A stretch of 30,839 nt of DNA, taken from a virus. The position numbers were made by a program, and so were the translations under genes. The stretch covers positions 1 through 30,839 of IMG/VR virus record IMGVR_UViG_3300045918_000031. One strand, given 5' to 3'. The notes beneath the pieces are model-generated. The model did not search any database. It was not told the origin of the DNA and was given only the letters and a program-made list of their open reading frames with translations. Below, piece by piece: positions 3,497 through 25,019 of the stretch; position 1 is the stretch's first letter; each line of letters opens with the position of its first letter.

Positions 3497-3781
3497 ATGG
3501 CAGCAACACAAAAACAAATTGATAGTTTAGCTAAAGCACGAGCAGCACGAAAATTTAATAAGGAGAATGTAGTGTCTACCTTGACTGAAACATATGATAC
3601 TCCTCAAATAAAATTTCCTCTTAATCAACTTAAGCAACCATTGATTCCAGCAGATGAGATTTGGCTTGATGCTCTGTTAGTTGTTATTCGCAATCGTGAA
3701 GTTAAAACTGTTCCAGAGGTTAAGCAATGTATCGCAGTCGCGGATGAAGTTCTTCGTTTACATCGTGAAAAATTCCAATGA
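3497..3781 (+). CDS. small helical hypothetical protein, 94 aa
   Basis: A basic N-terminal helix (SLAKARAARKFNKENV) is followed by a C-terminal helical domain (DEIWLDALLVVIRNREVKTV... ADEVLRLHREKF). The SD is strong (GAGGAGGT). Its TGA overlaps the ATG of rnh by 4 nt, so the two are translationally coupled. I considered the late co-activator gp33 because of the neighbourhood but see no convincing match. Confidence 0.7.
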   Translation: MAATQKQIDSLAKARAARKFNKENVVSTLTETYDTPQIKFPLNQLKQPLIPADEIWLDALLVVIRNREVKTVPEVKQCIAVADEVLRLHREKFQ

Positions 3782-6296: not shown

Positions 6297-6362
6297 ATGA
6301 CAACAGCAGCAGAAAGTCCACATTGGGTATTAGGTGCAATTTACAAGGCAGAAAGTAAATGA
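6297..6362 (+). CDS. possible 21-aa leader peptide upstream of dCMP deaminase
   Basis: A short frame starting MTTAAESPHWVLGAIYK whose TGA overlaps the deaminase ATG in the ATGA arrangement. AAGGA lies about 8 nt upstream. It could serve mainly to deliver ribosomes to the deaminase start, which has only a weak SD. No homologue is known to me. Confidence 0.4.
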   Translation: MTTAAESPHWVLGAIYKAESK

Positions 6363-6868
6363 AACAAAAGTGGTATAAGATGTATCTTGATATGGCAGAT
6401 ATAGCAGCAGAAGAATCTCATGCTATTAGATTGAAAGTTGGTGCTGTATTTGTTTCGCCAGAAGGTGTTATGAGTATTGGTATAAATGGTATGCCAGCAG
6501 GCGGTGATAATTTATGTGAAAATATTATCTACGCACATGGTGAGTGTGATTATCTTCCATATGACGGAATTAGTTCAGCATATCCATATCAGAATGCCAC
6601 CACCGGAGAAGTATATCGACTAGAAACTAAACCAGAAGTTAGTCATGCAGAAGAAAACTTATTTGGTAAAATGTTAAGACAAGGATTATCTTCAAAGAAT
6701 GGAATACTTTTTCTTACGCATCAACCATGTATCAATTGTGCCAAATTAATACGCAATGCCGGAATAATTGAAGTGATATATCGTAGAGAATATCGTGATA
6801 GATTGGGAGTAGATTATCTATTTAACAATGACGTAATATGCTTAAAGGAATATGATGCCACTATATGA
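6359..6868 (+). CDS. cd: dCMP deaminase
   Basis: 169 aa with the zinc site of the cytidine/deoxycytidylate deaminase fold: HAEEN (His96, catalytic Glu98) and PCINC (Cys124, Cys127). An insert of about 40 residues with Cys and His (CENIIYAHGECDYLPYDG) lies between strand 2 and the HAE helix, as in T4-type and ComEB-type dCMP deaminases, where it can hold a second zinc. It converts dCMP to dUMP for dTMP synthesis, skewing the nucleotide pool toward an AT-rich phage genome. Confidence 0.9.
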   Translation: MKQKWYKMYLDMADIAAEESHAIRLKVGAVFVSPEGVMSIGINGMPAGGDNLCENIIYAHGECDYLPYDGISSAYPYQNATTGEVYRLETKPEVSHAEENLFGKMLRQGLSSKNGILFLTHQPCINCAKLIRNAGIIEVIYRREYRDRLGVDYLFNNDVICLKEYDATI

Positions 6869-7747: not shown

Positions 7748-8767
7748 ATGGGTGGTAACGTATTTAAAGAATATCAAACAGGCAGATTATCAGCAGATGC
7801 ATATTTCAAACTCACAAATGATTTCGCATCTAGATTTCATCTGTGTTTTGGATTTTATCCAGTTCTAATCAAAGCATATCACAATAAAGAATCTTTCGGT
7901 GATGCTGACTTCATAATCGACTCAAGTAAATTACCATCTAACTGGACAGATCATCTTAAAAAGACATTCTTTCTCTCAGATAAACAATACTCAAAGAATA
8001 GTAATATAGTGTCGATCGGATATGAAAACTTTCAGTTTGACCTGATTGTCACTCCAGCAGATGAAATTGATTCTGCTATATTTTATTTTGCATTAAACGA
8101 CTTCGGTAATTTGATCGGAAGAATCGGTCACAAGCTAGGTATTAAGATTGGTCATCGTGGGATATCAATTGTTGTTCGTCACAAAGACGCATCAGATCAT
8201 ATACTTGATGAGATATTCTTAACAAAGAATGCAAAAGAGTCACTTGATATACTTGGATTAGATGCTGCTAGATATGACATAGGGTTTGATTCATTAGAAG
8301 ATATATTCGAGTATATTGCATCTAGTAAATATTTTGATCCAGACATTTATTCATTAGAACATAGATCAGGAGCGTCAAGAGTAAGAGACAAAAAGCGTGA
8401 AACATATTCTAAATTTTTGAAATGGGTAGCTGATACTAGTCCTAAAACTAATCATAATTTTGGTAATAAGTCTGAAGTAGGTGGATACTCTTTGCGTATG
8501 CCATATTATGAGACAGAGGTTCTTACCAGATATCCAGAAGTATCGTTGAAGGTTAAAACGTTGATCGAACAATATGAATTTAATAAAGAATTCAAAAAAG
8601 TTTATAATGGTGAGATAGTGTCTGAATTAACTGGATTGTCTGGTAAAGAGTTGGGTGCTTTCATGCAGATGATTAAACCAACTGAACATCAGAAGATTGA
8701 ATTTGTTAAAAATCCTTATTTACCAATTGCTTACATAAAATTTAAAAATATTTCATTAAATGGTTGA
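7748..8767 (+). CDS. nucleotidyltransferase, Pol-beta superfamily
   Basis: 339 aa starting MGGNVFKEYQTGRLSADAYF, an N-terminus I associate with phage nucleotidyltransferases. SFGDADFII (Asp52, Asp54) and FQFDLIVTP (Asp98) supply the three metal-binding carboxylates of the Pol-beta fold. The C-terminal GLSGKELGAFMQMIKP resembles the helical tail of tRNA nucleotidyltransferases. Substrate unknown; RNA 3'-end repair would fit the RNA repair genes at 27782 and 29501, but that is inference. GAGGAG lies about 9 nt before the ATG. Confidence 0.75.
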   Translation: MGGNVFKEYQTGRLSADAYFKLTNDFASRFHLCFGFYPVLIKAYHNKESFGDADFIIDSSKLPSNWTDHLKKTFFLSDKQYSKNSNIVSIGYENFQFDLIVTPADEIDSAIFYFALNDFGNLIGRIGHKLGIKIGHRGISIVVRHKDASDHILDEIFLTKNAKESLDILGLDAARYDIGFDSLEDIFEYIASSKYFDPDIYSLEHRSGASRVRDKKRETYSKFLKWVADTSPKTNHNFGNKSEVGGYSLRMPYYETEVLTRYPEVSLKVKTLIEQYEFNKEFKKVYNGEIVSELTGLSGKELGAFMQMIKPTEHQKIEFVKNPYLPIAYIKFKNISLNG

Positions 8768-9312: not shown

Positions 9313-10578
9313 ATGAGTATATTAAACATCTTAGACGAATTAGCTGCAACATCTTCAACAAATGAAAAAGTTGCTATTCTTCAACGTGAAAAAGATAATA
9401 TTGTTTTGAAGGAAGTATTCTCTGCTGCATATAATCCTATGATTACATACGGCATAAAAAGCATTCCACAGGTTTTACATACAACGTCAATGAATGTTGA
9501 TCTTCAATCTGCAATTAAAGCATTGAAAAAGTTGATAACCAGAGAAAAGACAGGCAATGATGCTATTCAATATTTAACTAACATAATGTCTAGCGTTAGA
9601 ATAGATGATGGAACTGTAATTGCTCGTATCATTCAGAGGGATCTTCGCTGCGGATGTTCTGATACATTAGCATCTAAGGTTTGGCCTAATATCGTACCAA
9701 CATTTGATGTCATGTTGTGTGGTAAAGACATTAGTAAGATATCATTTCCTGCATACTCACAAGAAAAATTTGATGGCAGTCGAGTGCATCTAATTTGGGA
9801 TGGATCACATGCAACAGCATTTTCCAGATCAGGAAAAGAATTCAAATTATTTGACATATTTGATGAAGATTTTAAAAAGATGAACGCTCCAGCTAATACG
9901 ACATTAGATGGTGAGTTGATTGTTATGGATGATGATGTTGTTTTAGATAGAAAGTCTGGTAATGGAATTTTAAATCAGGCTAATAAAGGAACTATTTCGC
10001 TAGAAGATGCTGAGAGAATTCGCATATGTGCATGGGATATAGTTGATGTATCATCTACTGTACCATATAAGGATCGTCTTGCAATATTAGAGCAATCACA
10101 AAATATTGGATTAAATCGTATTGTCATTGCAAAAACAAAGATAGTAAATTCAGAAGAAGAAGCGATGGAAGATTATGCGATTAAGCGTAAAGCAGGTAAA
10201 GAAGGAACAATTGTAAAGAACATTAATCATATGTGGGTTCCTAAAAGGTCGAATGAACTTTGTAAGTTGAAAGCAATTGAAACAGCCGATCTTATGGTTG
10301 TTGATGTCATCGAGGGAACAGGTAAATATGTCGGTATGGTTGGTGCATTAAAATGTAAAACAGAAGATGGATTACTTGAAGTTAATGTTGGCTCTGGTTT
10401 CTCTGATGCTGAACGCAAAGAATTTTTTAGATTTGGAATGATTAACTCTGTGATAGAAGTTCTGTATAATGAGGTCATTAAATCAAAAGGTAAAGATAAA
10501 GCATCATTATTTTTGCCAAGGTTTGAATGTGTGCGATTTGATAAAACTGTTGCTAATACATTAGGAGAACTTAAATGA
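9313..10578 (+). CDS. 30: ATP-dependent DNA ligase (T4 gp30-like)
   Basis: 421 aa. Nucleotidyltransferase motifs in order: I KFDGSR (Lys152 adenylated), III DGELIV (199-204), IV EGTIVK (297-302), V ELCKLK (315-320). An OB-fold domain follows (VGMVGALKCKTEDGLLEVNVGSG). The N-terminal 130 residues form the helical DNA-binding domain. The C-terminus is somewhat shorter than T4 gp30 (487 aa). It seals nicks left after Rnh removes primers. GGGAG lies 6 nt before the ATG. Confidence 0.9.
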   Translation: MSILNILDELAATSSTNEKVAILQREKDNIVLKEVFSAAYNPMITYGIKSIPQVLHTTSMNVDLQSAIKALKKLITREKTGNDAIQYLTNIMSSVRIDDGTVIARIIQRDLRCGCSDTLASKVWPNIVPTFDVMLCGKDISKISFPAYSQEKFDGSRVHLIWDGSHATAFSRSGKEFKLFDIFDEDFKKMNAPANTTLDGELIVMDDDVVLDRKSGNGILNQANKGTISLEDAERIRICAWDIVDVSSTVPYKDRLAILEQSQNIGLNRIVIAKTKIVNSEEEAMEDYAIKRKAGKEGTIVKNINHMWVPKRSNELCKLKAIETADLMVVDVIEGTGKYVGMVGALKCKTEDGLLEVNVGSGFSDAERKEFFRFGMINSVIEVLYNEVIKSKGKDKASLFLPRFECVRFDKTVANTLGELK

Positions 10579-13264: not shown

Positions 13265-15298
13265 ATGAGTAAGTTTTATACATACAGTAAGGCAGTTGGA
13301 AATAATGTCATAGCAAGATATTATGAAGGTGGTGAACAGTTCACTGAAAAGGTTCCATTTAAGCCTACATTATTCCTACCTAGCAAACTAAAAGAAACAG
13401 AGTGGAAAGATTTTTATAATGGCTCGCCCTTAGACGTTCATGAGTTTGATAGTATCAAAGCTGCTAAAGAATTTATAGAAACTTATAAAGAGGTTCAAGG
13501 TATATCCGTTCATGGATTTCAAAAGTTTGAATATCAGTATATCAATAAAGAATTTCCGGGTGAAATTGATTACGATCCAACCATGATTCGCACACTAATA
13601 CTTGACATTGAAACAGTATCAGAAGATGAAGATTCTTTTCCAGATATTCAATTAGCAGATGTTCCAATCGTTCTTATATCACTATACAATTCAGTAGATG
13701 GTAAATTGTCCGTCCTTGGATTAAAACCATATGACGACTCCAATGATGACTTTGAGTATAAATTGTTTTCATCTGAACAAGAGTTGCTGAAGTATTTTAT
13801 CGCGTTTAATCAGATACACAACTTTGATGTGTGGAGTGGATGGAACACTGAAGGTTTCGACATACCATATATCGTTAACAGAATATCTAATCTATTCGAT
13901 CTAGCAATGGTAAAGAAACTTTCTCCATTCAATTATGTTCGTGAAAAAAAGATCGAGATCCGTGGTAAGTTTGTCCAGACATATGAGATATATGGCATCG
14001 TATCATTGGACTATCTTGAGTTTTATAAAAAGTTCATGGTATCAAGTAAGGTATCTTATGCGTTAGGTGCAATTGCTCAAGAAGAATTGGGTGAGACTAA
14101 GCATGAGTTGCCAGGCATATCATTTCGAGATAATTATCAAAATCATTTTAAGGAGTTCGTATTTTATTCAGCAAAAGACTCATTGCTCGTTAAGAAAATT
14201 GATGATAAATTAAAAATAATTGATCTAGCATTCACTATTGCATATCTTTATAAATGTAATATTCAAGACGTGTTGAGAACAGTAGCGCCGTGGGAAATTT
14301 TCATTTTTAACAGTTTAGCTGATAAGAAGATTGCATATCCTCCACGTAGAAATAATCCAGTTGCTCCACTAGAGGGTGCATGGGTTAAAGAACCTATTCC
14401 AGGCATGTATGGTTGGTCAATGTCTTTCGACTTCTCTGCTCTATATGCCACTATTATTAGACAATGGAACATTTCACCAGAAACTTTTATACCAGCTAAA
14501 ACATCATTAGTTGTAAGTGATTTTATGCAATATTCCGATGCTGCTAAAGCTGCACTTGAATACGCAAAAGAACAAAATTGTTCACTAGCATGTAATGGTA
14601 CGATGTACGATAATTCTGTTATGGGTATCATTCCAGAATTAGTCTCAATGTCTACTATTAAACGTAATATTGCCAAGAAGTCAATGTTGGAATTAGAAAA
14701 AATATATCAAACAAATCATGATGATAGTCTCATACCAAAAATAATTAGTTTAAATAATAAACAGTTATCCTTTAAGTTGGTGGGCAATGGCGTTTATGGA
14801 GCCATGAATAATTCTGCATTCCACTTCTATGATTATCGTATGGGTGAAGCAATTACATTATCTGGTCAATTATCTGATATGCACTTAGCAGATAAGTTTA
14901 ATATCAATTTTAATAAGATTCTTAAATCTGTAGATAAGGATTATGTTGTATATGGAGATAGCGTTTCTGGTGATTCTATCATTGATGTAAATGGAGAAAA
15001 ATTGAAAATACAGACGTTTTTTGATTCCCATTTGCACACGGATTGTGATGACAAGGAATATGTGCTTCCTTGTATAGAATCAACCACATTGACATTAGAC
15101 GAAAGTAGATTAAGTCGAAATAAGATATTGCATGTGATGCGACACAAGATTAAAAAAGAAATGTTTAGAATAACAGTTCTTGATAAGTCGGTAGATGTTA
15201 CAGAAGATCATTCTATAATAGTTAGACGAAATGAAGTTCTAATTGAGGTAAAACCCCGTCAAATTCTATCAACAGATTTTATAATAACAATAAAATAA
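13265..15298 (+). CDS. 43: family B DNA polymerase, N-terminal part fused to a split-intein N-half
   Basis: 677 aa. Proofreading exonuclease: Exo I LILDIET (Asp114, Glu116), Exo II NTEGFD (194-199), Exo III YSAKD (301-305). Polymerase: motif A SFDFSALYATIIRQ (Asp389), motif B KLVGNGVYGAMNN, and the first half of motif C, YGD (563-565). Residue 566 starts an intein N-half: SVSGDSII (block A, Ser1), HVMRHKIKKEMFRI, and VDVTEDHSIIV (block B, His649). It then runs VKPRQILSTDFIIT to a stop at 15296-15298, where cis inteins carry the endonuclease. Close resemblance to archaeal Pol-c inteins (SVSGES..., ...VTEDHS). Trans-splicing with the product at 15384 would restore YGDTDS. SD TAGGAG. Motif A departs from the usual SLYPSI. 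Confidence 0.92.
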   Translation: MSKFYTYSKAVGNNVIARYYEGGEQFTEKVPFKPTLFLPSKLKETEWKDFYNGSPLDVHEFDSIKAAKEFIETYKEVQGISVHGFQKFEYQYINKEFPGEIDYDPTMIRTLILDIETVSEDEDSFPDIQLADVPIVLISLYNSVDGKLSVLGLKPYDDSNDDFEYKLFSSEQELLKYFIAFNQIHNFDVWSGWNTEGFDIPYIVNRISNLFDLAMVKKLSPFNYVREKKIEIRGKFVQTYEIYGIVSLDYLEFYKKFMVSSKVSYALGAIAQEELGETKHELPGISFRDNYQNHFKEFVFYSAKDSLLVKKIDDKLKIIDLAFTIAYLYKCNIQDVLRTVAPWEIFIFNSLADKKIAYPPRRNNPVAPLEGAWVKEPIPGMYGWSMSFDFSALYATIIRQWNISPETFIPAKTSLVVSDFMQYSDAAKAALEYAKEQNCSLACNGTMYDNSVMGIIPELVSMSTIKRNIAKKSMLELEKIYQTNHDDSLIPKIISLNNKQLSFKLVGNGVYGAMNNSAFHFYDYRMGEAITLSGQLSDMHLADKFNINFNKILKSVDKDYVVYGDSVSGDSIIDVNGEKLKIQTFFDSHLHTDCDDKEYVLPCIESTTLTLDESRLSRNKILHVMRHKIKKEMFRITVLDKSVDVTEDHSIIVRRNEVLIEVKPRQILSTDFIITIK

Positions 15299-15423
15299 AA
15301 TTACTTGAATCTTTTGGATTTGACAGCATTACAGTATGGAAAAAAGATTATAACGAAAATAAAGTTGCAACATTGGAGAGAATATGCAAGTTGATTACAC
15401 AAAAGCAAGCGGCTGTACGATAG
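15247..15423 (+). pseudogene. probable remnant of a homing endonuclease between the intein halves
   Basis: In the third reading frame (neither that of the N-half nor of the C-half gene) an open stretch contains KLLESFGFDSITVWKKDY (about 15298-15351), followed by NENKVATLERICKLITQ to a TAG at 15421. The pattern 'LExxGFxxITVWxxDY' resembles the C-terminal strand-helix of Vsr/EDxHD-type homing endonucleases and related nucleases. No start codon and no N-terminal catalytic region remain. It overlaps the ends of both half genes. Recognition is by pattern only. Confidence 0.45.
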
Positions 15424-16322
15424 AATCACTTGGAATATGTGAGATGTATGTATATGATTTAGAAGTCGAAACCGTACATAATTTTTTCGCAAACTCCATC
15501 CTAGTACATAACACCGATTCGGTTTATTTGAATGTTCAATCAGTAGTAGACAAGTTTTGTAAAGGAAAGACTCAGAAAGAGATAGTTGACTTTTTAGATA
15601 AGTTTGGAGATAAAGTTTGTCAGCCGATAATCAATGAGTCTGTTCAAGAGGTTTTCGATAAGATGAACTGTTATAAGAAGTTGATGTCATCTAAGCGTGA
15701 AGCGATTGCATCTAAGATTCTGTTCAGAGCAAAAAAGAATTATGCTTGTTATGTGCATAACTCTGAGGGAGTAGCATATGATCCACCAAAGTTAAAATGT
15801 ACTGGAATTGAAATTGTCAGATCATCTACTCCTAAGTGGTGCAGAGATAAATTAACAACAAGTTTGAGGATGATATTTGAAAGTGATGAACTATCATTTA
15901 GACAATATTTTGCTCAACTTGAAAAAGATTTTATGAAATTGACTCCAGATGAGATAGCATTCCCAAAAGGGGTTTCTGATATTGATAAATGGATTGAATA
16001 TGGTAAGACTAAAAAAGGAATACCATTTCATGTAAGAGCCGCTAACAATTATAATGTTAATACTAAAAAGTATAATACTCTTCAACAAATACAGAATGGA
16101 GATAAGACAAAGATTGTGTATTTGAAGATGCCTAATACTATACAACAAAATGCTATAAGCTTTCCATCTAATATGAAATTACCGAAGGAGTTAAATTTAG
16201 ATCAATATGTTGATTATCAAACACAATTTTTTAAAGCATTTGAGCATCCACTAAAGACATTAACAGATTGTGCTAAGTGGAGTCTAAGAGAAGAAGCATC
16301 ACTAGAGGATTTTTTCTCATAA
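15384..16322 (+). CDS. 43: split-intein C-half fused to the C-terminal part of DNA polymerase B
   Basis: 312 aa. Residues 1-43 are an intein C-half: MYVYDLEVETVHNFFANS (block F) and ILVHN (block G, terminal Asn43). Residue 44 (Thr, codon 15513-15515) is the +1 nucleophile, and TDSVYLNV resumes polymerase motif C. The rest is the palm/thumb (KKLMSSKREAIASKILFRAKKNY, LKCTGIEIVRSSTP) ending SLEDFFS, which resembles a clamp-binding tail. It has its own SD (GGAGAG, 15374-15379). The frame differs from the N gene, with an in-frame TAA about 24 nt upstream. The spliced polymerase would be 565 + 269 = 834 aa, close to T4-type polymerases. Confidence 0.92.
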   Translation: MQVDYTKASGCTIESLGICEMYVYDLEVETVHNFFANSILVHNTDSVYLNVQSVVDKFCKGKTQKEIVDFLDKFGDKVCQPIINESVQEVFDKMNCYKKLMSSKREAIASKILFRAKKNYACYVHNSEGVAYDPPKLKCTGIEIVRSSTPKWCRDKLTTSLRMIFESDELSFRQYFAQLEKDFMKLTPDEIAFPKGVSDIDKWIEYGKTKKGIPFHVRAANNYNVNTKKYNTLQQIQNGDKTKIVYLKMPNTIQQNAISFPSNMKLPKELNLDQYVDYQTQFFKAFEHPLKTLTDCAKWSLREEASLEDFFS

Positions 16323-16385
16323 ATAAAATTAGATGGATCGCCACCATTGATATAAATCAAATGGCTTAACTTAAAGGAGCATCAC

Positions 16386-16817
16386 ATGGCAAAGAAGAAA
16401 GAATTAACTATTCCAAATTGGACATACTTTGGTGCATCACATATTGGTATCGAACTTTATACAGATATTGATGATGAAGGTGAACCATATTACTATTCTG
16501 CACTCGTCATATTTTTAGATGATGGAACAGAGCGTGAAGAACCACTCGTTATTACTATTCAAACAGAATTAAACTCAGAATGTGTAGATTGTTTATTGGA
16601 TGCTACCTTAGATAGAGTATCTTCATTATTTCCAGATTCAATTTCAGCAACCGCACTTGTAATGGATGAAGATGGTGAAGTGGAATATGAGTACGACTTA
16701 AATGTATGGTCACATGATACTCATATCTTAGAACGTGGTGGTGAAGTTGTCGCTGATAAAGTTGAAAAAACAGATGATGATAAAATAATCTTACCTTCAA
16801 CTAACACATTACAATAA
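16386..16817 (+). CDS. acidic hypothetical protein, 143 aa
   Basis: Strongly acidic, beta-rich sequence (ELYTDIDDEGEPYYYSALVI, MDEDGEVEYEYDLNVW) with a basic first six residues and a charged tail. No motif recognised. AAAGGAG precedes the ATG. It lies between polymerase and uvsX, where T4 has imm, 42 and beta-gt, but does not resemble them. Confidence 0.7.
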   Translation: MAKKKELTIPNWTYFGASHIGIELYTDIDDEGEPYYYSALVIFLDDGTEREEPLVITIQTELNSECVDCLLDATLDRVSSLFPDSISATALVMDEDGEVEYEYDLNVWSHDTHILERGGEVVADKVEKTDDDKIILPSTNTLQ

Positions 16818-16826
16818 GAGGATAGT

Positions 16827-17858
16827 ATGAGTCTATTAGAAAAGTTAAAAGCAGCAGGAAGTATCAAAGCCGAGACAGTTTCAGAATCAGCATTTTTTGA
16901 GCCAAAAGATATTTGTCCAACATCCGTTCCTATTATCAATGTAGCATTAACTGGTGCATTAGATGGTGGAGTTCATTCTGGTTTAATTTCAGTATGTGGT
17001 CCCAGTCGTCATTACAAAAGTAATTTATCACTTATCATGATTAAAGCTTATATGTCAAAGTATAAAGATGCTGTTTGTTTATTTTATGACTCAGAGTTTG
17101 GAACATCTATTGACTATCTAAAGTCACATGGAATTGATACAGATCGTATGATTCATCTACCAATTATTCACATAGAAAATTTGAAGTTCGACTTGGTTAA
17201 GAAACTTGAAGAAATTAAAAAGTCTGATAAGGTAATCATATTTGTAGATTCTGTTGGAAATTTAGCTAGTAAAAAAGAAGTTGATGACGCTGAGAAAGAA
17301 AGTTCATCACAAGATATGACAAGAGCTAAAAGTTTAAAATCGTTTTACCGCATCATTACACCACATCTTACGATAAAAGATATTCCATGCATCGTAGTCC
17401 AACACTCATATGACACCCAAGAAATGTATTCTAAGCAGGTTATGAGTGGAGGTACTGGTGGAATGTTGTCATCTAATGTTGTTCTTATGTTAGGTCGATC
17501 ACAAGAAAAAGATGGTACTGAACTAGTAGGGTATAATTTTACTATCAATATCGAAAAGTCCAGATATGTAAGAGAAAAATCAAAGATGACATTTACAGTT
17601 AAATTTAATGGTGGTATCTCAACATATTCTGGACTATTAGATTTAGCATTAGAATCCGGACATGTTAAGAAGCCATCTAATGGATGGTATAGCAAAGTAG
17701 ATGTGACAACAGGTGAAATTGAAGATAAAAAATATCGTGAAGCTGATACTAACAACAAAGAATTCTGGACATCAATATTATCAGATAAAACATATCATGA
17801 ATTCGTCAAGCGTAAATACCAATTAGCTAAACCAGAATACGAAGAAGAATCTGAATGA
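16827..17858 (+). CDS. uvsX: UvsX-type recombinase (RecA family)
   Basis: 343 aa. Walker A GPSRHYKSN (58-66) has the T4 UvsX-type form (GPSKSFKSN) rather than the RecA form; Walker B is KVIIFVDSVGNL (135-146). GMLSSNVVLMLGR and a disordered acidic C-terminus (KPEYEEESE) also fit UvsX. It forms filaments on single-stranded DNA for recombination-dependent replication. SD GAGGA. Its TGA overlaps the next ATG. Confidence 0.92.
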   Translation: MSLLEKLKAAGSIKAETVSESAFFEPKDICPTSVPIINVALTGALDGGVHSGLISVCGPSRHYKSNLSLIMIKAYMSKYKDAVCLFYDSEFGTSIDYLKSHGIDTDRMIHLPIIHIENLKFDLVKKLEEIKKSDKVIIFVDSVGNLASKKEVDDAEKESSSQDMTRAKSLKSFYRIITPHLTIKDIPCIVVQHSYDTQEMYSKQVMSGGTGGMLSSNVVLMLGRSQEKDGTELVGYNFTINIEKSRYVREKSKMTFTVKFNGGISTYSGLLDLALESGHVKKPSNGWYSKVDVTTGEIEDKKYREADTNNKEFWTSILSDKTYHEFVKRKYQLAKPEYEEESE

Positions 17859-18379
17859 GTTCATACTTTTGTTTCAACGAAGGAGAATTTTCAAAGATGA
17901 TGTATTCATTTTCTGAATTTATATCCTTAAAGGAATCTGTTGAACCAAAAGAAACAGAATATGGTACTGATGGACATGATGGTAACTGGAATACAAAAGA
18001 TAATTTTGCATATACATTTTTCTCTCATTCTCCATCACACCATGTTTGTGTTAGCATACATAAGCATTATGGAACTTTAGGGTTTGGAGTAAAGAAAGGA
18101 CAGTTCTCAACTGATGCATCTGAATATGATGAAGGTCGAACTGGATTAAAAGATTCGCTGAGAGTATTTAATAAGGTAGCTAATGTGGCAGTTAAAGGTG
18201 CTATTGCTCATAAGATTCCAGTTCTAAGATTTCATGGAGCAGATGCTAAATTAAATCATACATACGACATGATTACTAAAAATAAACACTTTAATAATGC
18301 TATGAGTAAACATGGATTTGAATATGCTGGACAACATAAGTCTAATTTCATGTTTAAAAATAAAAATGAGGGCATGTGA
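17855..18379 (+). CDS. fourth paralogue of the ETxYGTDG family
   Basis: 174 aa if started at 17855 (ATGA overlap with uvsX). AAGGAG at 17880-17885 instead points to ATG 17897 or 17900, giving an N-terminus MYSFSEFISLKESVEPKE. Shared blocks with the gene at 5789: ESVEPKETEYGTDG, HHVCVSIHKHYGTLGFGV, GQFSTDASEYDE, LRVFNKVANVAVKG and a Lys/Asn-rich end. No catalytic motif. The shorter N-terminus resembles T4 capsid-targeting sequences (MKTYQEFIAEA) followed by an L-x-E protease site; this is suggestive only. Confidence 0.75.
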   Translation: MSSYFCFNEGEFSKMMYSFSEFISLKESVEPKETEYGTDGHDGNWNTKDNFAYTFFSHSPSHHVCVSIHKHYGTLGFGVKKGQFSTDASEYDEGRTGLKDSLRVFNKVANVAVKGAIAHKIPVLRFHGADAKLNHTYDMITKNKHFNNAMSKHGFEYAGQHKSNFMFKNKNEGM

Positions 18380-18681
18380 TGTATACTAAATTAGATAAAG
18401 ACATTAATGGATTCCAAGTATTCAAAATATCAGATGGACAATTTAAAGATATTGAATTTACATTTGGTTCTGTAAATGTAGAAGAGTCCACCGACAAGGA
18501 AGAGTGCAAAATATTCTTTACATATAATATCGTATCTGGTGAGATATTAGATAAAAAAGATTTTGAAAAATTGCTTTCAACTATTCTCAATAGTATAATG
18601 TTTGAACAGTTGAATGAAGGCACTTTAATATACGGAGGTGGTACAGATGGAGATTCAATACAAGACTGTTCATGGGCTTGA
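18379..18681 (+). CDS. hypothetical protein between uvsX and helicase, 100 aa
   Basis: GAGGG (18368-18372) with 6-nt spacing supports ATG 18379 (TGATG overlap with the preceding stop). The mixed strand/helix product contains ILNSIMFEQLNEGTLIYGGG near the end. A similar small protein sits near uvsX in cyanophage-type T4 relatives, as far as I recall. Function unknown. Confidence 0.65.
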   Translation: MYTKLDKDINGFQVFKISDGQFKDIEFTFGSVNVEESTDKEECKIFFTYNIVSGEILDKKDFEKLLSTILNSIMFEQLNEGTLIYGGGTDGDSIQDCSWA

Positions 18682-18853
18682 TGCTGTAGTATTTTTTGAT
18701 AGAGCATCTAATGATTATCCTCTACTTGGTATGTACTATAATGAAAAAGTTGAAGAATGGATGCCTACAAGATGGGATATTAATGGTAAAGTAAATTCTA
18801 CATTAAATTCTGGGCTAGATTTGATTCTGCCTGTAACAGCGGAGGCTGCATAA
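18647..18853 (+). CDS. hypothetical protein, 68 aa
   Basis: GGAGGT (18634-18639) lies 7 nt before ATG 18647; a GTG at 18638 is inside the SD and unlikely. The product (MEIQYKTVHGLDAVVFFDR...MPTRWDINGKV) looks like a small beta domain. It overlaps the previous gene by 35 bp in another frame and ends directly at the TTG of the helicase gene. Confidence 0.65.
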   Translation: MEIQYKTVHGLDAVVFFDRASNDYPLLGMYYNEKVEEWMPTRWDINGKVNSTLNSGLDLILPVTAEAA

Positions 18854-20239
18854 TTGGATGATACAAAAATTGAGAATATTATCCTTGAAAATCTGATTAA
18901 CAATGATGAATATTTTAGAGCAGCTATTCCACATCTTAAAGAAGCATATTTTGAAACTAGAGAGGAACAAACTTTACTAAAATTTATTCAACTATTCTCA
19001 GATAAACATAATAAACCACCTAATCAAAAAATATTATCTCTGATGGTTAGAGAACATAAAGGATTCTCTCAGGATGAATTTGATAGTGCATCTGAACTGG
19101 TAAAAGAATTATCTGGTAAGGAAGAAAATAAAGATTGGTTGCTTGAAAGAACAGAACAGTTTTGCAGAGATAAAGCTGTTTATAATGCCATCATGGACTC
19201 GATCAACATTATTGATGGTAAAGATAAATCATTAGATCAAGGAGCTATTCCAAGTATCTTACAAGATGCTCTGTCGATATCATTTGATAAAAGTGTTGGT
19301 CATAACTTCTTTGATGATGCTGGATCAAGATTTGATTTTTATCATGCTAAAGAAGAACGTGTTCCATTTCATCTTTCATACTTCAATAAGATAACTAAAG
19401 GTGGATTGCCTAAAAAATCATTATCTGTTATTTTAGCCGGAACTGGAGTTGGCAAAAGTTTATTTATGTGCGACCATGCAGCTAATGCTATTAAGTCTGG
19501 ATATAATTGTTTGTATGTTACTCTTGAAATGGCAGAAGAAAGAATTGCCGAACGCATTGACTGTAACGTATTAGATATTACTCTTGATGGTCTTTCAACG
19601 ATGAAGAAAGAGGATTTTATATCAGGTATAAAAGGAGTAGAATCTAAATCACATGGCAAATTAGTTATTAAAGAGTATCCTACTGGGTCTGCTAGTGCTG
19701 CACATATCAGATCATTGCTAGAAGAATTAAAATTGAAACAAAATTTTATACCAGATATGATTTATATCGACTACCTGAATATTTGCTCAAGTTCACGATT
19801 TAAGTCTGGTGGAAATCATAACTCTTATACGATTGTTAAATCAATAACAGAGGAAATGAGAGGGTTAGCAGTTGAATATAATGTTCCGATATTATCAGCT
19901 ACTCAAACAACTCGTGGAGGAAATGGAGCATCTGACATTGAAATATCAGACACATCTGAAAGTATAGGATTGCCTCAATCTGTTGACATGTTATTCGCTA
20001 TTATCCGAACAGAAGAACTTGATAAGATGGGTCAAGTTATGGTTAAACAATTAAAGTCAAGATTTGGCGACATATCGTATTATCGTAAATTTTTGATTGG
20101 GATTGATTTGTCAAAATTTAAATTTTATGACGTTGAGGATTCTTCACAATGTCAGTTATCTGATTCTGGTAAGATTGATTCTTCTGTATCATCTGTTGGC
20201 ATGAGGCAACATGATTTTTCTGATATAGATTTTAGTTGA
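18854..20239 (+). CDS. 41: replicative DNA helicase, gp41/DnaB-like
   Basis: 461 aa (T4 gp41 475). Walker A AGTGVGKS (195-202), the VTLEMAEERIAERID motif after it, and Walker B DMIYIDYLN (301-309) identify the RecA-like DnaB-family C-terminal domain. The helical N-terminal domain occupies residues 1-140. It unwinds the fork for the polymerase and interacts with primase. The start is TTG (18854) with GGAGG at 18841-18845; no ATG occurs in frame near it. It ends in an acidic tail (HDFSDIDFS). The TGA lies inside the next -35 box. Confidence 0.9.
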   Translation: MDDTKIENIILENLINNDEYFRAAIPHLKEAYFETREEQTLLKFIQLFSDKHNKPPNQKILSLMVREHKGFSQDEFDSASELVKELSGKEENKDWLLERTEQFCRDKAVYNAIMDSINIIDGKDKSLDQGAIPSILQDALSISFDKSVGHNFFDDAGSRFDFYHAKEERVPFHLSYFNKITKGGLPKKSLSVILAGTGVGKSLFMCDHAANAIKSGYNCLYVTLEMAEERIAERIDCNVLDITLDGLSTMKKEDFISGIKGVESKSHGKLVIKEYPTGSASAAHIRSLLEELKLKQNFIPDMIYIDYLNICSSSRFKSGGNHNSYTIVKSITEEMRGLAVEYNVPILSATQTTRGGNGASDIEISDTSESIGLPQSVDMLFAIIRTEELDKMGQVMVKQLKSRFGDISYYRKFLIGIDLSKFKFYDVEDSSQCQLSDSGKIDSSVSSVGMRQHDFSDIDFS

Positions 20240-20263
20240 CATATTAATTTGTTCATGTATAAT
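20236..20263 (+). promoter_or_regulatory. sigma70-like promoter
   Basis: TTGACA (20236-20241), 16-bp spacer, TATAAT (20258-20263), followed by GCACACATT as at 129. The helicase stop TGA is embedded in the -35. It drives the small atypical cassette starting at 20299. Confidence 0.88.
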
Positions 20264-20298
20264 GCACACATTCGCTGAACATTTAGAGTGAGGAATAT

Positions 20299-20493
20299 AT
20301 GAAAACGAACCCAGCCAAGAAGAACTTGCTTAAAGCCTACCCGCTACTCGACGTGTCCAACAACCTTGAATTCAAGCAAAGGCTTGCGTGGTTAAGTGAA
20401 GGCATGCTCCGAAATCACATGGAAAGTGTCATCAATTACAAGAAAGATCCGCAAGAAATAGAAGCATACTTAACTTATAGAAGCTTTTCATGA
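20299..20493 (+). CDS. small hypothetical protein of atypical base composition, 64 aa
   Basis: Starts MKTNPAKKNLLKAYPLLDVS, with GAGGA 5 nt upstream. Codons are visibly richer in C and G (GCC, AAG, CTC, GAC, GTG) than in neighbouring genes. The sequence is helical and basic. Family not recognised; the composition suggests recent acquisition. Confidence 0.65.
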   Translation: MKTNPAKKNLLKAYPLLDVSNNLEFKQRLAWLSEGMLRNHMESVINYKKDPQEIEAYLTYRSFS

Positions 20494-20606
20494 CTACTGA
20501 AATGTGGATCATAACGGATTTGAGAGGAAGATTCGTGGCGCTCGCCACATGGAACGAAGCACGCTTGCGTTACGGCAGCGTGCAATATGGATGGAGGAAA
20601 TTATGA
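20490..20606 (+). CDS. small hypothetical protein, 38 aa, possibly the 5' part of a frameshifted gene
   Basis: ATG overlaps the preceding TGA (ATGA). It starts MTTEMWIITDLRGRFVALAT and ends YGWRKL. Same GC-rich codon style as the gene before. The next frame (20587-20739) reads on convincingly, so this and the next entry may once have been one gene. Confidence 0.5.
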   Translation: MTTEMWIITDLRGRFVALATWNEARLRYGSVQYGWRKL

Positions 20607-20739
20607 GGGAGACACATACAATAGAGCCGACTTTGACCCAGCAAAACATGTTGATTATATCGACATGCGCGGTAACAAGTTTGGAATAGGAAAGCCATAC
20701 GAGAATGAACGGACGCTTTTTCTAGGTAATTCGGAGTGA
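20587..20739 (+). CDS. small hypothetical protein, 50 aa
   Basis: Begins MDGGNYEGDTYNRADFDPAK and continues VDYIDMRGNKFGIGKPYE, a well-balanced, natural-looking sequence, more so than the competing frame over the same bases. The ATG at 20587 has no good SD. It overlaps the previous frame by 20 bp. Either translationally coupled or the 3' part of a broken gene. Confidence 0.45.
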   Translation: MDGGNYEGDTYNRADFDPAKHVDYIDMRGNKFGIGKPYENERTLFLGNSE

Positions 20740-20743
20740 AGGA

Positions 20744-20830
20744 ATGATTTACAATCATTTGAATAGTGTTATTTGTTACACTCAAAACCAAAGTGAAGTT
20801 TCTTTGTATATAAGTTATAAAGGAAGATAA
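20744..20830 (+). CDS. possible 28-aa micropeptide
   Basis: GGAG lies 7 nt before ATG. The product begins MIYNHLNSVICYTQNQSEV. Codon use returns to the AT-rich style of the phage. It fills the gap before the gene at 20835. Confidence 0.35.
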   Translation: MIYNHLNSVICYTQNQSEVSLYISYKGR

Positions 20831-20834
20831 TATT

Positions 20835-21074
20835 ATGAAAAAAGATGTCACCGTTACAATTGAAGTACCTGTTTATATCGTTAGAGATTCTAATGATATG
20901 CCTGTGCAAACGTGTGCCGAAGATTTTACACAAAACAAAGTTTGTCGATTTTTTTCATCCTCTCATTTTGGAACAATAGACATTTGTTCAGCTACTAATA
21001 CAGAAGTTTTTAGAATGAATGGTAATGGTTGGATCGAACCAGCTTATAATTGTATTTGTAAATATAAGATGTAA
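20835..21074 (+). CDS. hypothetical protein, 79 aa
   Basis: AAGGAAG precedes ATG. A beta-strand-rich start (DVTVTIEVPVYIVRD) is followed by five Cys residues (TCAED, KVCRF, DICSA, CICKY), perhaps metal-binding. No family recognised. It ends 2 nt before the phosphoesterase gene. Confidence 0.65.
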   Translation: MKKDVTVTIEVPVYIVRDSNDMPVQTCAEDFTQNKVCRFFSSSHFGTIDICSATNTEVFRMNGNGWIEPAYNCICKYKM

Positions 21075-23848: not shown

Positions 23849-24126
23849 AAGGATATCACAAAGAAAAATCAGCAACACTAGATGATTTTTTTGAAAATGG
23901 AATAACAATAGTAGATGCAAATGAATGTTCTACTCAATGGATTGGTATGCCAGAATTTGTTAACGAAGAAGTTAATCCTTATGCTAGAATTGTAGTGAGA
24001 TTTGATAATGCTGATTCTCTTGCTGAATTTGCTAAATTGATTAATCAACATCTAACACACAAAACACTTAGCATATGGTATCCAATGATTCCTAGAGGAT
24101 TGAATTCTGATTTGAGGTATGAATGA
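23842..24126 (+). CDS. conserved 94-aa phage protein (WIGMPEF family)
   Basis: Contains WIGMPEFVNEEVNP, IVVRFDNADSLAEFAKLI, NQHLTHKTLSIWYP. The signature WxGMPEF...FAxLxxQxxTxxTxSxWYP is familiar from phage genomes, where such proteins often accompany DNA-modification genes. AGGAG precedes ATG. It overlaps the methyltransferase by 7 bp and the glycosyltransferase by 4 bp, implying coordinated production. Confidence 0.75.
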   Translation: MLKGYHKEKSATLDDFFENGITIVDANECSTQWIGMPEFVNEEVNPYARIVVRFDNADSLAEFAKLINQHLTHKTLSIWYPMIPRGLNSDLRYE

Positions 24127-25019
24127 TGAACCCAAAGTATCCAATCTATATTATCAGTAAAGGTAGGTGGACATCAGATTGTAGGTTGACAGCAAAATCT
24201 CTTGAAGATATAAAAGTTCCATACTTCATAACAGTAGAAGAACAAGAGTATGAAAACTATCTTAATGCAACAAATCCAGAATTTGGAACAGTTCTAATCT
24301 TAGATAAAAAATTTCAAGATGAGTATGATACATGCGATGACTTAGGATCAACTAAATCAAAGGGACCAGGAGCAGCTAGAAACTTTTGTTGGGATCATGC
24401 AATAAAAAATGGACATAAACGACACTGGGTTATGGACGATAACATGGTAGGATTTTTCAGATTAAATCACAATATTAGAGTTAAAGTGTCTACTGGTAAA
24501 ATGTTTAGAGCAGCAGAAGATTTTGTTGATCGGTTTACTAATGTTCCTATATCTGGATTAAATTATAGATTTCTTGCTACTCCAACAGAGTATAGACCTC
24601 CATTTGTGAAAAATACTAGAATATATTCTTGTCTTTTAATCGAAAATGATATACCATATCGGTGGAGAGGTAGATACAACGAAGATACTGATCTTTCTCT
24701 TAGAGTATTAAAAGATGGATTATGCACCATCCAATTTAACGCATTTTTATGTGGTAAGGTTGGTACACAACAAGTTAAAGGAGGTAACACTGAAGCATTT
24801 TATGCACATGAAGGAACAATGGCAAAGTCTCAAATGCAAGTTTATTTACATCCAGATGTTTCAAAATTATTATTCCGCTTTAATAGGTGGCATCACTATG
24901 TAGATTACAGTTCTTTCAAAAATAATATGTTAATTAGACGACCAGATTTAATATTGTCAACTGAAATAAACAACTACGATATGAAACTCATCACAAAGGA
25001 AAAAAATGCCACATTATAA
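24123..25019 (+). CDS. TET-associated-type glycosyltransferase (TAGT family)
   Basis: 298 aa. YPIYIISKGRWTSDCRLTAK at the N-terminus, GPGAARNFCWDHAI, HWVMDDNMVGFFRLN (a DxD-like acidic site), NTRIYSCLLI, YRWRGRYNEDTDLSLRVLKD and FNRWHHYVDY are the blocks of the TAGT family. These enzymes glycosylate hydroxymethylated pyrimidines in phages with TET/JBP oxygenases. No oxygenase is seen in this window. Here it sits in an operon with a methyltransferase, the WIGMPEF protein and a deaminase. SD GAGG. Confidence 0.8.
   Translation: MMNPKYPIYIISKGRWTSDCRLTAKSLEDIKVPYFITVEEQEYENYLNATNPEFGTVLILDKKFQDEYDTCDDLGSTKSKGPGAARNFCWDHAIKNGHKRHWVMDDNMVGFFRLNHNIRVKVSTGKMFRAAEDFVDRFTNVPISGLNYRFLATPTEYRPPFVKNTRIYSCLLIENDIPYRWRGRYNEDTDLSLRVLKDGLCTIQFNAFLCGKVGTQQVKGGNTEAFYAHEGTMAKSQMQVYLHPDVSKLLFRFNRWHHYVDYSSFKNNMLIRRPDLILSTEINNYDMKLITKEKNATL

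What the first reader, a model, noticed from the sequence alone, without database searches (positions are those of the whole stretch)
13265..16322. DNA polymerase B encoded as two genes joined by a split intein at the catalytic YGD|TDS motif
Seen: the N gene ends YGD + SVSGDSII...VTEDHS... + stop. A separate downstream gene in another frame, with its own SD and ATG, begins with an intein C-half (VYDLEVETVHNFFANS, ILVHN) and resumes with TDSVYL. Joining at D565 and Thr44 restores YGDTDS exactly and gives an 834-aa polymerase. Known: archaeal Pol-c inteins occupy this site, and Nanoarchaeum equitans has a split polymerase with a split intein there; split inteins in 'fractured' phage replication genes have been described from metagenomes. 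Inference: the phage must trans-splice to make an active replicase, which could also act as a timing switch.
Basis: partly seen in the sequence, partly recalled or inferred. Interest (0 to 1): 0.92.

Follow-up and report, generated by a model that had tools for sequence, protein, structure and literature searches.

The report
Split-intein phage polymerase with endonuclease fossil
A T4-like phage encodes its DNA polymerase as two proteins that a self-removing 'split intein' very probably stitches together across the active site; the arrangement is already known from other phages, and the gap between the two genes holds a fossil of the mobile endonuclease gene that once sat between them.

Summary
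Gene 13265-15298 ends in a 112-aa intein N-half after YGD565. Gene 15384-16322 starts with a 43-aa C-half, then TDSVYL. Joining them gives an 834-aa gp43-type family-B polymerase. A second contig (L002) is identical across the split. All intein blocks and residues needed for Ser1/Thr+1 trans-splicing are present. The closest solved structure is the Aes123 PolB1 split intein, 9HTH (E=4e-26), a phage PolB intein reported to trans-splice.

The arrangement is a known kind. Aeromonas Aes508/Aes516, Campylobacter CP21, Tenacibaculum PTm1, Pseudomonas MIJ3 and dozens of viral contigs have it, mostly with a Vsr-like homing endonuclease gene between the halves.

The endonuclease was lost from its 5' side. 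About ten intein lineages show the same tail-only pattern, plausibly because the second polymerase gene's start codon lies inside the endonuclease gene (27 of 31 intact loci).

The intein sits at D|TDS, two codons from the DTD|S site used by the nearest intein relatives. Nothing supports a 'timing switch'.

The parts
13265..15298 (+). gp43 N-gene: polymerase N-extein plus intein N-half, 677 aa
   Evidence: PHROG 262 DNA polymerase E=3e-163
13265..14959 (+). N-extein, 565 aa: exonuclease and most of the polymerase domain, ending in catalytic Asp565 of YGD|TDS
14960..15295 (+). Intein N-half (IntN, 112 aa): Ser1, block A SVSGDSII, NX-motif His (VMRH), block B VTEDHS
15280..15423 (+). Remnant of a Vsr-like homing endonuclease: C-terminal tail NNNKIKLLESFGFDSITVWKKDYNENKVATLERICKLITQKQAAVR*, in a third frame (profile hit 15283-15408, stop 15421-15423)
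   Evidence: HMM from 31 relatives' endonuclease C-termini, window not included: E=8e-10 in the window's six frames, next best hit E=0.17; profile positions 282-324 of 325
15375..15378 (+). Shine-Dalgarno-like GGAG of the C-gene, inside the endonuclease-remnant frame
15384..16322 (+). gp43 C-gene: intein C-half plus polymerase C-extein, 312 aa
   Evidence: PHROG 262 E=1e-88
15384..15512 (+). Intein C-half (IntC, 43 aa): block F VYDLEVETVHNFF, block G ANSILVHN
15513..16319 (+). C-extein, 269 aa, starting at Thr+1 (TDSVYL): second catalytic Asp and the thumb

Best explanation
This is a naturally split class-1, Ser1/Thr+1 (oxyester, cysteine-independent) intein in a T4-type gp43 family-B DNA polymerase. 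The two genes are translated separately. IntN and IntC associate, splice in trans and leave an 834-aa polymerase whose active-site motif YGDTDS is restored. The split arose as a 'fractured gene' in which a free-standing Vsr-like homing endonuclease gene lay between the intein halves. In this phage a deletion removed that gene's 5' part and core. It left only the 3' tail, which overlaps the start codon and ribosome-binding site of the C-gene. Shown: both genes, the junction residues, the intein motifs, the homology to a trans-splicing intein with a solved structure, and the endonuclease tail. Inferred: that splicing occurs, that it is essential, and that the tail is kept as a translation-initiation region.
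For: Exact junction and 834-aa product; match to RB69 gp43. The window intein against PDB: 9hth E=4e-26, then other inteins only. Ser1, NX-His62, T81/H84 of block B, YD of block F and the terminal Asn are invariant across seven polymerase inteins. The same split arrangement is annotated in Aes516, Aes508 and PTm1 and published for MIJ3, and occurs in 53 of 62 non-identical pol-c inteins. Endonuclease tail E=8e-10. In 31 loci with an intact Vsr-like endonuclease the IntC start lies inside or touches its ORF in 27. Every detectable remnant in a shortened gap is the C-terminal part (profile 211-325 of 325), never the N-terminal part. The isolate pair Aes508/Aes516 differs by this kind of deletion.
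Against: No splicing was measured. Contiguous mini-inteins also occur in this family (9 of 62), so the split state is not obligatory. The remnant is short (42 aligned residues), although its E-value is strong. Reads were not available, and L002 may come from the same or a related sample as the window.
Confidence: 0.93

Rival explanations
1. The two products work as a non-covalent two-subunit polymerase without splicing, as reported for a ribonucleotide reductase split by a homing endonuclease; the intein pieces are inert tails.
For: A split RNR that keeps its function as two peptides is mentioned in PMC10448857. gp43 is split elsewhere in some phages: ACG-2014f gp43A/B lacks the intein at this site.
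Against: All residues of both intein halves needed for catalysis are conserved. The split falls between the two catalytic aspartates of one active-site loop, with 112 and 43 extra residues on the broken ends.
Confidence: 0.04
2. The split is an assembly or sequencing artefact, or a dead allele of a contiguous intein gene.
For: The window is one metagenomic contig; contiguous mini-inteins exist at the same site in relatives (CC_R7, SCTP-2, L075).
Against: Contig L002 is identical across the region. The C-gene has its own SD and ATG. The gap contains the end of an endonuclease gene, as expected of a fractured gene and not of a frameshift. The same layout recurs in many independent contigs and isolates.
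Confidence: 0.02
3. The split intein is kept because it works as a regulatory or timing switch for replication.
For: Only plausibility: the polymerase is inactive until the halves meet.
Against: The genes are adjacent and co-directional, with no extra promoter or terminator above chance. Related Aes-derived split inteins splice within seconds (PMC13014065). The distribution (endonuclease present or lost, contiguous or split, 25 state changes on 62 tips) looks like the life cycle of a mobile element.
Confidence: 0.03

Closest known systems
Aes123/Aes508/Aes516 PolB1 split intein, Aeromonas phages (PDB 9HTH)
   Same: T4-like gp43; IntN 120 aa and IntC 39 aa split at the endonuclease position; Ser1; Asp at -1. 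Aes508 has a Vsr-like endonuclease gene between the halves; Aes516 has lost it and keeps its tail.
   Different: Inserted at DTD|S, two codons downstream of the window's D|TDS; +1 residue is Ser, not Thr; only about 42% identical. In Aes516 the tail is fused in frame to IntN; here it lies in a third frame.
Campylobacter phage CP21 PolB1 split intein, and the contiguous homologue in phage CC_R7
   Same: Closest intein by sequence (47-52% identical). CP21 has IntN, an intact Vsr-like endonuclease gene and IntC.
   Different: DTD|S insertion site. CC_R7 carries a contiguous mini-intein and CP21 an intact endonuclease gene; the window is split with a residual endonuclease.
Nanoarchaeum equitans split Pol intein and archaeal pol-c inteins (PI-TkoII type)
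   Same: Same D|TD insertion point in family-B polymerases (own knowledge for N. equitans and archaeal pol-c); Ser1/Thr+1 chemistry; PI-PkoII (2cw7) is matched by the profile.
   Different: Archaeal hosts. Archaeal maxi-inteins carry LAGLIDADG endonucleases (own knowledge), not Vsr-like ones.
'Fractured genes' with split inteins and a Vsr-like endonuclease (Dassa et al. 2009, not held here; cited in PMC6892783 and PMC10448857)
   Same: Gene halves carrying split-intein halves, with a free-standing Vsr-related endonuclease gene between them.
   Different: Here the endonuclease is reduced to its C-terminal tail.

Membership tests
Split intein (class 1, Ser1/Thr+1) | Ser/Cys1, block B TxxH, block F, C-terminal (His)Asn, Ser/Thr/Cys +1 | tested here: met
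   Ser1, VTEDHS, VYDLE, HN|T all present; invariant columns
Split intein (class 1, Ser1/Thr+1) | NX-motif histidine typical of cysteine-independent inteins (PMC10189870, PMC13014065) | tested here: met
   His62 (VMRH) lines up with invariant His in seven polymerase inteins; corresponds to His68 of Aes123
Split intein (class 1, Ser1/Thr+1) | Halves encoded by separate genes, split at the endonuclease position (IntN about 100-120 aa, IntC about 35-50 aa) | tested here: met
   112 aa and 43 aa in different frames
Split intein (class 1, Ser1/Thr+1) | Trans-splices | not testable with these tools
   needs expression
pol-c insertion site (D|TDS of PolB motif C) | Insertion between the first catalytic Asp and Thr of YxDTDS | tested here: met
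   YGD|intein|TDSVYL; alignment to RB69 YGDTDS
Aes123/CP21-type phage PolB split-intein clade | Groups with these inteins in a tree | tested here: inconclusive
   Placed in the 33-row clade with them (96/89) on a long branch; holding it with the D|T clade instead gives AU p=0.064
Aes123/CP21-type phage PolB split-intein clade | DTD|S insertion site | tested here: not met
   Window is D|TDS
Fractured gene with Vsr-like homing endonuclease | Endonuclease gene between the two halves | tested here: not met
   Only the C-terminal tail remains, E=8e-10; the nuclease core is absent
T4 gp43-type family-B DNA polymerase | Exonuclease and polymerase domains, motif C, gp43 family profile | tested here: met
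   PHROG 262 on both halves, RB69 structure match E=2e-114, Pfam DNA_pol_B and exo1

The most novel reading that the evidence does not exclude
Two linked novelties are not excluded. (1) Endonuclease loss in phage PolB fractured genes always runs from the 5' side and stops before the tail, because the tail carries the start of the second polymerase gene. This would be a ratchet that keeps the intein split after the selfish gene dies. (2) The intein moved by two codons, from DTD|S to D|TDS, which is tolerated because both sites offer Asp at -1 and a hydroxyl residue at +1.
Probability: 0.4. Interest if true: 0.5.

Novelty: new member of a known kind. Interest (0 to 1): 0.36.

Why it matters
It adds a divergent, probably active, cysteine-independent split intein to a family used as a protein-ligation tool. 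It also catches a step in the life cycle of a fractured gene: the endonuclease is dead, the split persists, and a fossil marks where it was. The set of relatives assembled here (intact endonuclease, tail only, none, contiguous) makes the question 'why do split inteins stay split after the endonuclease is lost?' testable.

Tried and rejected
Programmed frameshift or a contiguous intein across the gap: rejected, because the frames are closed by stops and the gap encodes another protein's tail. Group I intron in the gap: no Rfam match in the window. Relay promoter or terminator between the genes: not above chance. Second family-B polymerase in the window: none found; the 339-aa ORF 7748-8764 hits a PHROG named 'DNA polymerase' but has no Pfam match and no significant PDB match. 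Intein-placement tree: the window falls inside the DTD|S clade, but the AU test (p=0.064) does not firmly reject grouping it with the D|T clade. A scan of genome contigs for HN|TDSVY gave three matches, all in short open frames with no sign of a polymerase or intein. No structure prediction was run, because the joined intein is not letter-for-letter in the window and a solved relative (9HTH) already covers its full length.

Full report
What is in the sequence. ORF 13265-15298 is a polymerase N-part ending YGD (Asp565), followed by 112 residues starting SVSGDSII and containing VTEDHS, then a stop. ORF 15384-16322 starts with 43 residues ending ILVHN and continues TDSVYL. Joined at D565 and Thr44 they give 834 aa with YGDTDS restored. 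The joined protein matches RB69 gp43 (1clq, E=2e-114), and its YGDTDS lines up with RB69 YGDTDS. PHROG 262 (DNA polymerase) is hit by both exteins. By homology to RB69 the intein separates the two catalytic aspartates of motif C. Neighbours are T4-like replication genes: UvsX at 16827 and a DnaB-like helicase at 18854 downstream, RNase H-type 5'-3' exonuclease at 3778 and DNA ligase at 9313 upstream, and polynucleotide kinase and RNA ligase further downstream. A second contig, L002, is identical over window 14781-20866, across the split. It may come from a related sample, so it does not replace reads.

Is it an intein? Pfam Intein_splicing hits both halves below its cut-off. The intein alone finds PDB 9hth at 4e-26 over its full length, and after that only other inteins. 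9HTH is the Aes123 PolB1 intein. The key residues Ser1, the NX-motif His, block-B Thr and His, block F, and the terminal Asn are conserved with six other polymerase inteins. The +1 residue is Thr. The halves are split at the canonical endonuclease position. Trans-splicing is inferred, not shown.

What the gap is. In the third frame, 15283-15408 encodes NNNKIKLLESFGFDSITVWKKDYNENKVATLERICKLITQKQ. Many relatives carry a Vsr-like endonuclease ORF of about 290-395 aa between the intein halves. A profile of the C-termini of 31 of these ORFs, built without the window, hits this stretch at E=8e-10. It is the only significant hit in the window's six frames; the next best is 0.17. It covers the last 43 positions of a 325-position full-length profile. 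Pfam's Vsr-like model PF18741 points the same way, weakly (0.043, its last 31 positions). The endonuclease gene was therefore deleted from its 5' side.

Comparison. A tblastn of the intein against phage records gave 52 records. They include Aes516 and Aes508 (annotated as intein-containing split polymerase; Aes508 has a VSR-like ORF in between), PTm1 (VSR endonuclease), MIJ3 (HNH endonuclease; [quoted passage not shown] In viral contigs 215 stretches encode relatives of IntN. Among 62 non-identical inteins, 53 are split and 9 contiguous. Of the split ones, 32 have an intact endonuclease ORF, 12 a C-terminal tail and 9 none detectable. On the intein tree the 'tail only' state needs 10 changes, 'intact versus lost' 20 and 'split versus contiguous' 8. 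These counts rest on a partly unresolved tree, and the tail calls of L029 (E=0.013) and L068 (E=0.0013) are weak. Aes508 against Aes516 is the clearest pair: Aes516 lacks the endonuclease core, and its tail VVWDNEYLANKDGTINRIVEEIYDRVY is fused in frame to IntN.

Why the tail survives. In 27 of 31 loci with an intact Vsr-like endonuclease, the IntC start codon lies within or touches the end of the endonuclease ORF, often with an SD-like motif before it. In every shortened gap with a detectable remnant the match is to the C-terminal part of the profile (positions 211-325), never to the N-terminal part. In the window the SD of the C-gene (15375-15378) and its ATG lie inside the remnant frame. Retention of the tail as the translation-initiation region of the second polymerase gene is the simplest reading; it is inference. 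The data do not exclude that deletions reaching further would simply re-fuse the intein into a contiguous one, as in CC_R7 or L075.

Insertion site. The window uses D|TDS, as in the archaeal pol-c site. Most phage split inteins here use DTD|S, and a second group of about two dozen, in a different PolB clade, uses D|T. The window's polymerase and intein are both most similar to DTD|S members, and the tree puts it inside that clade (96/89), but on a long branch. The AU test against grouping it with the D|T clade gives p=0.064. A two-codon shift is thus favoured, not proven. Both sites put a catalytic Asp at -1, and Asp-1 is described as important for the Aes-type intein (PMC13014065). A pattern scan for HN|TDSVY(L) in viral contigs found, besides L002, only two contiguous inteins.

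Verdict. It is a new member of a known and biochemically studied kind, with an added endonuclease fossil and an unusual insertion point for a T4-type gp43. The 'timing switch' has no support.

Noticed in passing
L008 3966-6831 (and L003-L011): The closest relatives of the window polymerase (56-61% identical) have an uninterrupted AGDTDS site, but gp43 is broken further upstream by a group I intron (Rfam RF00028, 5589-5797, E=3e-23).
   Followed up: partly
L008 6896-7801 and 7915-8442: In the same relative UvsX appears to be split by a second, Cys1 split intein (IntN after VVSGG, IntC ending VTHN|TGLYYSS), while the window's UvsX (16827-17858) is uninterrupted.
   Followed up: partly
window 14428-14457: Polymerase motif A reads DFSALYATI instead of the near-universal DxxSLYPSI; the metal-binding Asp and the Tyr are kept.
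   Followed up: no
L012 3881-6897: Synechococcus phage ACG-2014f gp43 is split into two genes at another position, with small ORFs between and neither an Rfam intron nor an intein detected there.
   Followed up: partly
window 7748-8767: A 339-aa ORF hits PHROG 24943 named 'DNA polymerase' but has no Pfam match and no significant PDB match; identity unclear.
   Followed up: partly
window 24123-25019 and 6359-6868: A glucosyltransferase of the beta-glucosyl-HMC type (PHROG 842) and a dCMP-deaminase-like protein suggest modified DNA bases.
   Followed up: no
L014 5203-7401: A contiguous intein with a similar N-half (SVSGDSTVTV) interrupts a gene that looks like queuine tRNA-ribosyltransferase in a viral contig.
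   Followed up: no
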